NCBI RefSeq assembly: GCF_000376265.1
Contig: NZ_AQWU01000056.1
Span: 1 to 41,094, forward strand
DNA from: Thermus igniterrae ATCC 700962
GTDB lineage: Bacteria > Deinococcota > Deinococci > Deinococcales > Thermaceae
DNA length: 41,094 bases
Direction: 5' to 3'
Numbering within the stretch: position 1 is the first letter of the stretch; each line of letters starts with the position of its first letter. Below, piece after piece: positions 21,063 through 26,469 of the stretch. The notes beneath the pieces are model-generated. The model searched no databases, was not told the DNA's origin, and saw nothing but the letters and a program-made list of their open reading frames with translations. Made by a program: the position numbers and the translations under genes.

Positions 21063-22205
21063 CTAGACCCGCCCCAGGGCCTCCACCACGGGGATGCGGC
21101 TAGCGTGGTAGGCGGGAAGGAGGCCAGCCAAAAGCCCCAGGAGGAGGGCCACCAGGAGGGCGAAGAGGGAGAGGCGGGGGGTCACGGCGGAGAGGGCCAG
21201 GCCCACCTGGTCCAGGGTGTAGAGGTTGATGGCGAAGGAAACGACGCCCCCCAGGGCCAGGCCCAAGGTACCCCCCAGGAGGGCGAGGAGGAGGGCCTCC
21301 AGCACCACCAGGCGGAAGATGAAGCCCCGCCTGGCCCCCAGGGCCCGCATGACCCCGAACTCCCGGATGCGCTCGTAGACGCTCATCATCACCGTGTTGG
21401 CCACCAGAAGCCCCCCCACGATGAGGGCCACCAGGCTGATGCCGAAACGCACCAGGTCGCTGATGCGCAGGGCGCGCTCGGCGAAGCGCATGACCTCCCC
21501 CGTGGTCTGGGCCTTGAGGCCGGGCACGGCCGCCTCCAGGGCCCGGGCTACCTCTTCCGCCTTCTGCCCGGGGTTCAGGGCCACTAGGACGGCGCTGTAG
21601 TTCTCCGTGCCCAGCACCTGCTGCAGGGGGGCCAGGGGAACGAAGATGAGGTTGTCCGCCAGGCCCCCGCTTTCCTCCAGGATGCCCACCACCTTAAGGC
21701 CCACCTGGGGAGACAGCCTTAAGGGGCTTCCTAGGGAGAGCTGGCTCCGCTTGGCCACCTTGCCCCCCACCACCGCCCCCCCTTCCGTGGGCACCAGGCG
21801 GCCCTCCCTGGCCCGCACCCCGGGGTAGAGGAGGTCCGGCCCCACCCCCGGGGGTAGGCCCTGGAAGAAGAAGCTGGTCTGGGGGTCAAACCCTCCGCGG
21901 GCCAGGAAGAGGGTGGGGACCAGGGCCCGCACCCCCAGGGCCTGCCCGGCCTCCTGGAGGGCGGCCAGCTGCCTGGGGGTGATCTCCGGGTAGCCGCCAA
22001 ACCCCAGGCCCTCCGTGCCCTCGGGCACCACCTGGATGGCGGGGCCCACCCGGGAGAGTTCCTGGAAGAGGGAGCGCCGCAGGCCCTCGCCGAAGGAGAG
22101 GAAAAGGACCATGCTGGCGGTGGCGATCAGAACCCCCAGGAGGGTGAGGAGGCTCCGCACGGGACGGGCCAGGAGGTTGCGCAGGACCAGGTGGAGGATC
22201 TCCAT
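21063..22205 (-). CDS. ABC transporter permease (MacB/FtsX family)
   Basis: The 380-residue permease has the MacB/FtsX layout: one N-terminal transmembrane helix ([20 protein letters not shown]), a large extracytoplasmic domain of about 230 residues, then three more helices near the C-terminus (from about residue 265). The block [20 protein letters not shown] between helices 2 and 3 is the coupling region characteristic of the family, and the end [10 protein letters not shown] is typical too. It lies directly upstream of its ATPase. The extracytoplasmic domain contains [11 protein letters not shown] and resembles the MacB periplasmic core. Substrate unknown. TAAGCT eight bases before the ATG could be a leaderless -10 box. 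Confidence 0.87.
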
Positions 22206-22258
22206 GCCCCCTGAGCTTACCTTGCTCCCCTGCCATCGGGGTGGCGGGGGCTACAGGG

Positions 22259-22534
22259 CTAGAGCAGGCGCTCCACGAACTGGGTCTCCAGGGCCTCGAG
22301 GAACTGCCTGGGGTCCACCTTCTGCCGCTCGGGATGCTGGTAGTAGGCGGCCTCGGCCTGCTCAAAGTCCTCGTGGGCCACGAACCAGAGAAAGTCCCGC
22401 TCCGAAAGCCAGTAGGCCCCCAGGATCTGGAAGCCCGTGGCCTGCCTTAGGGGAACGATGGTCTCCAGGAAGACCCGCTGGAAGGCCTCCCTGGTCCCCT
22501 CCTTGAGCCGGTAGCGCCGCATCTGGACCTTCAT
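22259..22534 (-). CDS. NIPSNAP-like dimeric alpha-beta barrel protein
   Basis: This 91-residue cytoplasmic protein starts MKVQMRRYRLKEGTREAF and carries the pattern of NIPSNAP-type ferredoxin-like barrels: a strand, a helix with FLETIVPLRQATGFQILGAYWL, a strand with DFLWFVAHEDFEQAEAAYY and a short C-terminal helix. Such domains form homodimers and have varied or unknown roles. I choose ATG 22532-22534. A GTG 13 codons upstream (22571-22573) would start inside a perfect hairpin and lacks a ribosome binding site at proper spacing. The ABC exporter follows on the same strand after 53 bases. The transposon TnpB gene diverges from it upstream. Confidence 0.65.
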   Translation of the reverse strand: MKVQMRRYRLKEGTREAFQRVFLETIVPLRQATGFQILGAYWLSERDFLWFVAHEDFEQAEAAYYQHPERQKVDPRQFLEALETQFVERLL

Positions 22535-22623
22535 CCCAATGGGGTCTAGGGCGGGAAACCCCAGGCCGCCCACGGGCGGCTACACCCCCTCACCTCCCTT
22601 GCGTAGTTTATTACGCTACTTTT

Positions 22624-23787
22624 GTGCAGACCCTCACCCTGCGCTGCACCCTCAAGCCCACCCCCGAGCAGGCCGCGGCCCTGGAGAAGACCGTGCACCT
22701 CTTCACCCAGGCCTGCAACCACACCCTGTGGGTGGCCAGGGAGAGGAGGGAGTTCCGCCGGTTCAAACTGCACCACCTGGTCTATAAAGACCTTCGGGGT
22801 ATGGGCCTTTCCGCCAACCTGGCCGTGCAGGTGGTGGCCCGGGTGGGCCGGAGGCAGGGGAACCGGGCCAAGGCCTATCGGCCCACCTCCTGTGCCTTTG
22901 ACCAGCGGACGCTTTCCCTCCGGGGGGAGGCGGTTTCCCTCTCCACCGTTTCCGGCCGGATGCGTGTCCCCATGAAGCTGGGGGAGTACCAGCGGCAGGT
23001 CCTTGGGAAGGCGGTGAGCGTGCAGGGGGGTGTTCTGGTCCGGGGATCCAAGGGGAGGTGGCATATCTACCTGACCCTCAGGGTAGAGGTCCCGGAGCCC
23101 CCCCAGGGTGGGGGGAAGGTGGTGGGGGTGGACCTAGGGCAGCGGGCCCTGGCCACCCTCTCCACGGGGGTGCAGTTCTCTGGAGGACCCCTCAAGGGGA
23201 AGCGTCTGCACTACCTGCGGAAGCGGGCCGAGATCCGCTCCAAACTGGACCGCCCTTCCCTACGCACCAGGGGGGTAAAGCGCCTCTGGGCACGGCTTGG
23301 GGGAAGGGAGGCCCGCTTCGTGAACCACACCCTGCATACCCTGGCGAGGCGCATCGTGGACAGCCTGGAGCCCGGGGACACCCTGGCCATTGAGGACCTC
23401 ACCGGGCTCAGGGGCCGCACCAGGAGGCGAGGTCCTGAGGAGCGCTATCTGCACGAGCTCTGGCCCTACGCCCGCTTCCGCTCCTTCCTGGAGTACAAGG
23501 CCAGGCTGAGGGGGATACGGGTGGTGGCGGTGGACCCCAAGCACACCAGCCAGGAGTGCCCCCGTTGCGGGCACACCGCCCGAGAGAACCGGAAGACCCA
23601 GTCCCTCTTTCGCTGCGTGGCCTGTGGGTTTCAGCACAACGCCGACTGGGTAGCGGCTACCAACATTGCCCGAAGAGCTGGCTCTACGGGCATGGGCCGC
23701 TGTAAACCGGCCCCTATTCTGAGGGTGTCTTCTCCCCATCGTCCTCCTTCGGAAAGCCCTAGCCAGAACACGCTAGTGTTGGGTTAG
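22624..23787 (+). CDS. tnpB: RNA-guided nuclease TnpB of an IS1341-type element
   Basis: The 387-residue protein has an intact split RuvC nuclease: D170 in GVDLGQ, E257 in LAIEDLTGL and D341 in HNADWVAATNI. A zinc finger lies between the last two (C312/C315 in CPRCG and C331/C334 in CVACG). TnpB proteins with these residues are RNA-guided DNA endonucleases, using an RNA from the element's right end as guide. The start GTG 22624 has no ribosome binding site. The C-terminal 35 residues are low-complexity, Pro- and Ser-rich, as usual where the gene overlaps its guide RNA. No TnpA recombinase is present. Length and motifs suggest a working protein and not a decayed one. Confidence 0.92.
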   Translation: MQTLTLRCTLKPTPEQAAALEKTVHLFTQACNHTLWVARERREFRRFKLHHLVYKDLRGMGLSANLAVQVVARVGRRQGNRAKAYRPTSCAFDQRTLSLRGEAVSLSTVSGRMRVPMKLGEYQRQVLGKAVSVQGGVLVRGSKGRWHIYLTLRVEVPEPPQGGGKVVGVDLGQRALATLSTGVQFSGGPLKGKRLHYLRKRAEIRSKLDRPSLRTRGVKRLWARLGGREARFVNHTLHTLARRIVDSLEPGDTLAIEDLTGLRGRTRRRGPEERYLHELWPYARFRSFLEYKARLRGIRVVAVDPKHTSQECPRCGHTARENRKTQSLFRCVACGFQHNADWVAATNIARRAGSTGMGRCKPAPILRVSSPHRPPSESPSQNTLVLG

Positions 23788-23797
23788 GGTGGTTTAC
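23702..23797 (+). ncRNA. Candidate right-end guide RNA (omega RNA) scaffold of TnpB
   Basis: GTAAACC (23702-23708) can pair with GGTTTAC (23791-23797), closing a region that contains a second stem: CCCTAGCC/GGTTAGGG (one G-U pair) topped by AACAC-GCTA-GTGTT, at 23757-23789. The region overlaps the tnpB 3' end, where guide RNA scaffolds of TnpB lie. If the scaffold ends near 23797, the guide would be the next 16-20 bases, which are the alaS promoter. The structure is read by eye and the transcript is inferred. Confidence 0.45.
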
Positions 23798-23807
23798 GCC
23801 GACATCC

Positions 23808-23813
23808 TATAAT
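23808..23813 (+). promoter_or_regulatory. -10 box of alaS (leaderless promoter)
   Basis: A perfect TATAAT ends seven bases before the alaS ATG at 23821, so transcription should begin at or next to the start codon. The position of a -35 box (about 23784-23790) falls in the right-end hairpin of the inserted element and shows only a weak TTAGGG. Confidence 0.75.
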
Positions 23814-23820
23814 CAAAGGC

Positions 23821-26469
<2,649 letters not shown>

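What the first reader, a model, noticed from the sequence alone, without database searches (positions are those of the whole stretch)
23702..23820. TnpB guide region coincides with the alaS promoter
The element's right end is bounded by a predicted stem (GTAAACC/GGTTTAC) and hairpin. TnpB guides are read from the DNA just past the right end, which here is the TATAAT box and leader-free start of alaS, an essential gene. TnpB keeps all catalytic residues. If active, the guide would target alleles lacking the insertion at this essential promoter, a strong retention force; it could also bind the alaS promoter in trans. The element end also replaces the alaS -35 region.
Basis: partly seen in the sequence, partly recalled or inferred. 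Interest (0 to 1): 0.6.

Follow-up and report, generated by a model that had tools for sequence, protein, structure and literature searches.

The report
Thermus TnpB element beside alaS promoter
A small selfish DNA element carrying an intact RNA-guided DNA-cutting enzyme (TnpB) has inserted precisely between two Thermus genes, so that its RNA guide would copy the promoter of the alanyl-tRNA synthetase gene; this fits the known way such elements defend their own insertion site, with the unusual detail that in this family the landing motif is often a gene's start codon.

Summary
The element is 22535-23797 (1263 bp). Its right end is fixed by alignment with about 20 related elements. Both ends are fixed by empty sites in other Thermus genomes, one of which (G006) aligns without gaps across the joined flanks. 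The 3'-terminal stem GTAAAC/GTTTAC is a covarying pseudoknot of a typical TnpB omega-RNA scaffold. The flank read as guide starts at 23798 and contains the alaS -10 box TATAAT (23808-23813). TnpB keeps its RuvC triad (D170, E257, D341) and is under purifying selection. The target/TAM motif is (T)TCAT; here TTCAT (22530-22534) is the antisense start codon of the divergent gene, whose own -10 overlaps the alaS -10, and the guide covers both. In 11-12 of 19 independent insertions the motif is likewise a start codon. The own genome has no TAM-bearing target, so no binding of its own alaS promoter is expected; it has no detectable Y1 TnpA; sister alleles mismatch the guide seed. Replacing the -35 probably matters little, because only the -10 is conserved across Thermus.

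The parts
22259..22534 (-). Divergent neighbour, 91-aa conserved small gene (NIPSNAP-like by eye; no Pfam match). Its ATG is the complement of CAT 22532-22534.
   Evidence: ORF; start codon position conserved in the Thermus relatives that keep the gene next to alaS; no Pfam or NCBIfam match.
22530..22534 (+). TTCAT: target motif / putative TAM, directly left of the element
   Evidence: TCAT directly precedes the left end in 17 of 19 independent relatives, TTCAA in the other 2.
22535..23797 (+). Whole element, 1263 bp, TnpB only (no tnpA)
   Evidence: Ends from alignment of relatives and from empty sites in G006, G021, G024.
22612..22617 (+). TACGCT, leaderless -10-like box 6 nt before the tnpB GTG; relatives mostly have TATACT or TATAAT here
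   Evidence: Sequence, comparison with relatives.
22624..23787 (+). tnpB, 387 aa, intact. RuvC D170, E257, D341; zinc ribbon C312, C315, C331, C334.
   Evidence: NF040570 guided_TnpB 179 bits over cut-off 100; Pfam OrfB_IS605 and Cas12f1-like_TNB; alignment to solved Cas12f/TnpB chains; residue numbers; dN/dS about 0.14-0.22.
23674..23797 (+). Predicted omega-RNA scaffold, overlapping the 3' end of tnpB
   Evidence: Conserved block and covarying helices.
23694..23713 (+). Hairpin GGGCCG / CGGCCC whose loop contains GTAAAC
   Evidence: 99% of cells paired, one compensatory pair type.
23702..23707 (+). GTAAAC, 5' strand of the pseudoknot, pairs with GTTTAC 23792-23797
   Evidence: Three different paired variants in relatives.
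23756..23791 (+). Terminal hairpin of the right end
   Evidence: Sequence and alignment.
23798..23817 (+). Flank read as the guide: GCCGACATCCTATAATCAAA (first 16-20 nt)
   Evidence: Directly adjoins the fixed right end; length by analogy with ISDra2 (PMC8612924).
23804..23809 (-). TAGGAT, -10 of the divergent gene in the empty site (6 nt from its ATG), now cut off from that gene by the element
   Evidence: the same box and spacing are readable in empty sites L011, L014, L015.
23808..23813 (+). TATAAT, -10 of leaderless alaS
   Evidence: Invariant in 22 distinct alaS upstream sequences of the nearest genomes, 7 nt from the ATG.
23821..26469 (+). alaS, 882 aa
   Evidence: Orthologues at 91-97% identity over the N-terminal part in the genus.

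Best explanation
This is a TnpB-only element of the IS200/IS605 (IS1341-like) kind. It inserted directly 3' of a TTCAT motif that is also the antisense start codon of the gene divergent to alaS. Shown: the exact ends, the TAM-like motif, the intact nuclease gene, a covarying omega-RNA scaffold ending at 23797, and alaS promoter sequence as the first 16-20 nt beyond it. Inferred: the tnpB transcript is processed into an omega-RNA whose guide reads GCCGACATCCTATAAT..., and TnpB uses it to cut copies of this locus that lack the element (TTCAT followed by that sequence). The break is then repaired from an element-bearing chromosome copy, which keeps or spreads the element among genome copies and against incoming empty alleles. 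alaS keeps its essential -10 and start, so the insertion is tolerated. The divergent gene loses its own -10. The guide does not act on the occupied alaS promoter, because the TAM there has been replaced by the element end.
For: Ends. Empty sites. TCAT before the left end in 17 of 19 independent insertions. Joining the flanks restores an ORF-adjacent -10 for the left gene in 5 of 19 cases, against about 2% in control positions. Covarying pseudoknot and hairpins: 98% of cells paired; covariation score 0.120 against 0.053 in shuffles, 0 of 500 as high. TnpB family and catalytic residues. Purifying selection, dN 0.15-0.21 and dS 0.7-1.2. No TAM-bearing target in the own genome. Mechanism of the family: PMC8612924, PMC10278001, PMC11870625.
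Against: No RNA or activity data. Single copy, with no Y1 TnpA detected in the genome, so excision that would create empty alleles is not expected now. The tnpB -10 (TACGCT) is a weaker variant than in relatives. No conspecific empty allele was available. Sister-species alleles carry 2-3 mismatches at guide positions 1-5 and would probably escape. dN/dS reflects the whole lineage, not necessarily this copy since insertion.
Confidence: 0.6

Rival explanations
1. The element is an inactive passenger: tnpB is expressed weakly or not at all, and the guide position over the alaS promoter has no consequence.
For: Single copy, no Y1 TnpA in the genome, a weaker -10 than relatives, and a closely related copy in G007 that has acquired a stop.
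Against: Open frame, full catalytic and zinc-binding residues, intact paired scaffold, and low dN/dS over the lineage.
Confidence: 0.27
2. TnpB has been co-opted as an RNA-guided regulator of alaS, in the manner of TldR.
For: The guide covers the -10 box of alaS and the overlapping -10 of the divergent gene.
Against: The RuvC triad is intact, whereas TldR proteins are described as nuclease-dead (own knowledge). The occupied locus has TTTAC instead of TTCAT next to the guide match, and no other target exists within 3 mismatches. The insertion is found only in this genome among 27 sampled genomes of the genus.
Confidence: 0.03
3. The main effect is on transcription. The element supplies new upstream sequence, and tnpB/omega-RNA read-through feeds into alaS, so the insertion was kept because it changed alaS expression.
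For: tnpB and alaS are codirectional, no terminator-like site was found between them, and the -35 position is replaced.
Against: No sigma-70 -35/-10 pair is found at the occupied site. The upstream region differs widely among Thermus while TATAAT is fixed. A -10 alone can act as a promoter in Deinococcus (PMC12340547).
Confidence: 0.1

Closest known systems
ISDra2 TnpB of Deinococcus radiodurans (IS200/IS605)
   Same: TnpB with D/E/D RuvC triad and zinc ribbon; right-end RNA overlapping the 3' end of tnpB; guide from the right flank; insertion directly 3' of a pentanucleotide that serves as TAM.
   Different: Motif here is (T)TCAT instead of TTGAT; no tnpA in the element or genome; distant in protein sequence (PDB 8h1j, E 1.3e-9).
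TnpB elements of Allomeiothermus silvanus and Thermus thermophilus plasmids
   Same: Same family (70-72% identity), same type of right-end pseudoknot; TTCAT motif in the T. thermophilus plasmid copies inspected.
   Different: Other insertion sites; T. thermophilus plasmid copies use the GTCAGCT/AGCTGAC version of the stem and are not at an evident start codon.
TldR (nuclease-dead TnpB-derived RNA-guided transcription factors)
   Same: Guide lies over a promoter.
   Different: Catalytic residues intact here, and the guide matches the element's own insertion site, not a promoter elsewhere.

Membership tests
TnpB of IS200/IS605-type elements | TnpB protein with RuvC D/E/D and C4 zinc ribbon | tested here: met
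   NF040570 over cut-off, Pfam PF01385 and PF07282 over cut-off; triad aligned to solved chains; residues located.
TnpB of IS200/IS605-type elements | Structured RNA at the right end, ending at the border of the element | tested here: met
   Covarying pseudoknot and hairpins ending at 23797.
TnpB of IS200/IS605-type elements | Insertion 3' of a short fixed motif (TAM) without target duplication | tested here: met
   TCAT in 17/19 relatives, TTCAA in 2; empty site in G006 aligns without duplication.
TnpB of IS200/IS605-type elements | Right-end RNA is made and guides DNA cleavage | not testable with these tools
   No expression or biochemical data.
Autonomous IS200/IS605 element | Y1 transposase TnpA in the element | tested here: not met
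   No Y1_Tnp in the whole genome; the control genomes rang. The element is TnpB-only.
TldR | Inactivated RuvC triad | tested here: not met
   D170, E257, D341 present.
TldR | TAM plus guide match at a promoter in the genome | tested here: not met
   Only the own right flank matches, without TAM.

The most novel reading that the evidence does not exclude
In this Thermaceae TnpB family the TAM (T)TCAT is in effect an antisense start codon (ATGA). In a phylum where about 30% of genes carry a -10 directly at the ORF (PMC12340547), such elements systematically land between a gene and its own -10, and their guides systematically spell promoters. That would be a ready-made starting point for TldR-like promoter control and a built-in way to spare coding sequence. 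It could be a targeting preference and not merely the outcome of selection against coding insertions.
Probability: 0.2. Interest if true: 0.6.

Novelty: new member of a known kind. Interest (0 to 1): 0.4.

Why it matters
It gives an exactly delimited TnpB element with an experimentally testable target in an essential-gene promoter of a polyploid, naturally transformable genus, where gene-drive-like retention on a chromosome could be measured. It also raises the question whether a start-codon-shaped TAM makes TnpB guides read promoters as a rule, which bears on how TnpB-derived promoter regulators could arise.

Tried and rejected
Rfam search of 22200-24000 gave only chance-level hits. No relatives were found in viral contigs. 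Empty sites of the T. thermophilus plasmid copies were sought with joined flanks, but no plasmid covered the junction. A self-targeting or trans-binding role was rejected for lack of a TAM-bearing site. A sigma-70 -35 contributed by the element was looked for and not found. Start-codon enrichment was compared with a rough null from this window: of 139 TCAT sites 120 lie inside coding sequence, 14 intergenic, at least 5 at start codons. Against all sites the enrichment is large; against non-coding sites only (5 of 19) it is modest, so selection against coding insertions may explain most of it. Literature searches for TnpB with TTCAT, and with leaderless genes, gave nothing relevant. No structure prediction was run, since sequence families and solved-structure matches already settle the protein's identity.

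Full report
What was checked. The window is contig C56 of a draft genome of the genus Thermus (near relatives include T. altitudinis and T. brockianus by contig match). tnpB lies at 22624-23787 and alaS at 23821-26469. The element occurs once in the genome; the only other TnpB trace is a broken one on another contig. No Y1 transposase is detectable in the genome, while the control genomes rang.

Ends. About 20 related elements in Thermaceae and relatives (65-79% protein identity) were fetched with flanks and aligned. Their similarity stops after GGTGGTTTAC (or its variants TTGTTAC and AGCTGAC), which puts the right end at 23797. On the left, the conserved element sequence follows TCAT in 17 of 19 independent insertions and TTCAA in 2. 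My search pattern asked for TCAT or TCAA, but the same is visible in the unfiltered listings. In the window this gives TTCAT 22530-22534 and element 22535-23797, 1263 bp.

Empty sites. Several Thermus genomes without the element keep the small divergent gene next to alaS. In G024 and G021 the distance from its CAT to TATAAT is 10 nt, as in the joined flanks of the window, and GACATCCTATAATCAAA is identical. G006 aligns to the joined flanks over 158 nt without a gap.

Right-end RNA. GTAAAC sits in the loop of hairpin GGGCCG/CGGCCC and pairs with the last six bases of the element. Three paired versions occur (GTAAAC/GTTTAC, GTAACA/TGTTAC, GTCAGCT/AGCTGAC). On 18 distinct sequences 97.9% of cells pair, with covariation 0.120 against 0.053 in shuffles (0 of 500 as high), and sliding the partners destroys it. 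These relatives share ancestry, so the shuffle number is not a probability, but the independent double changes stand.

Protein. NCBIfam guided_TnpB and two Pfam domains are over their cut-offs. The triad is D170, E257, D341, with a C4 zinc ribbon. dN/dS against eight relatives is about 0.14-0.22.

Guide and promoters. The first 20 nt beyond the end are GCCGACATCCTATAATCAAA. TATAAT (23808-23813) is the alaS -10. It is invariant in the 22 distinct alaS upstream sequences examined, while positions further upstream are poorly conserved. In the empty site the divergent gene has its own ORF-adjacent -10, TAGGAT, which overlaps TATAAT by two bases; the same pair is readable in G021, G024 and G006. 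The element thus sits between the divergent gene and its -10 and leaves the alaS -10 in place. The guide covers both boxes. ORF-adjacent -10 boxes are a known expression mode of Deinococcus-Thermus, mostly without a -35, and the -10 alone suffices in D. radiodurans (PMC12340547). Loss of the former -35 position is therefore real but probably of small effect. Expression was not measured.

Family pattern. In 11-12 of 19 insertions TCAT is the antisense start codon of a plausible gene, for example glutamate racemase, a glucose/sorbosone-type dehydrogenase, a glyoxalase-fold protein and a cupredoxin. Joining the flanks restores a -10 for that gene in 5 of 19 cases (control about 2%) and a Shine-Dalgarno-like run of five or more in 4 (control about 8%). 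This supports the ends and suggests why guides read promoters here. A rough null shows that selection against coding insertions could produce much of the pattern.

Mechanism. Known: TnpB guided by right-end RNA cuts TAM-flanked DNA, and cutting of the donor joint is proposed to reinstate the element (PMC8612924); TnpB processes its own mRNA (PMC10278001); it can drive element-bearing plasmids to fixation (PMC11870625). Inferred: the same here for empty alleles of the alaS locus, with the occupied chromosome copies of a polyploid cell as template (PMC6469415 for T. thermophilus). Limits: no TAM-bearing target in the own genome, no transposase, and the nearest sister-species alleles have 2-3 mismatches in the first five guide positions. 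The essentiality of alaS is not needed for this mechanism and adds no demonstrated force.

Verdict. A well-preserved member of a known kind, at a striking place. The retention reading is plausible and standard. The trans-binding reading is not supported.

Noticed in passing
L005, L010, L012, L013 (G011, G014, G019, G009), L028 (G016), L019 (G018), upstream of alaS: The junction between alaS and its divergent neighbour is repeatedly interrupted in Thermus: about 720 bp in the G011/G014 group, about 100 bp of stem-rich sequence in G016, and other sequence in G018, always leaving CCTATAATC intact.
   Followed up: partly
L004 (G017) around 900-1200: A TnpB of a different group ends just downstream of the small divergent gene next to alaS in another species.
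   Followed up: no
L037 (G030), element borders: The 11 nt CCATACCTCGC follow both the TTCAT at the left end and the right end, an apparent duplication not expected for this element type.
   Followed up: no
L035 (G001), element borders: The right flank is the 3' part of a tRNA gene, consistent with a start just after the CTCAT of a tRNA-Met-like anticodon loop, and the left flank also holds tRNA sequence: the element seems to have entered a tRNA gene and the left side was rearranged.
   Followed up: partly
L137 / L073 (G039:C1:277742-279800): A deletion derivative that lacks the middle of tnpB but keeps the ends and scaffold, placed just upstream of the antisense start codon of a P-II-like gene.
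   Followed up: no
L039, L124, L126, L127 (G033) and L119 (G031), scaffold region: Some copies carry an extra roughly 40-nt insert with its own hairpins inside the scaffold, in the loop that holds the pseudoknot strand.
   Followed up: no
G000:C52:7354-7566 (L084): A second, broken TnpB remnant with two stops in the same genome.
   Followed up: no
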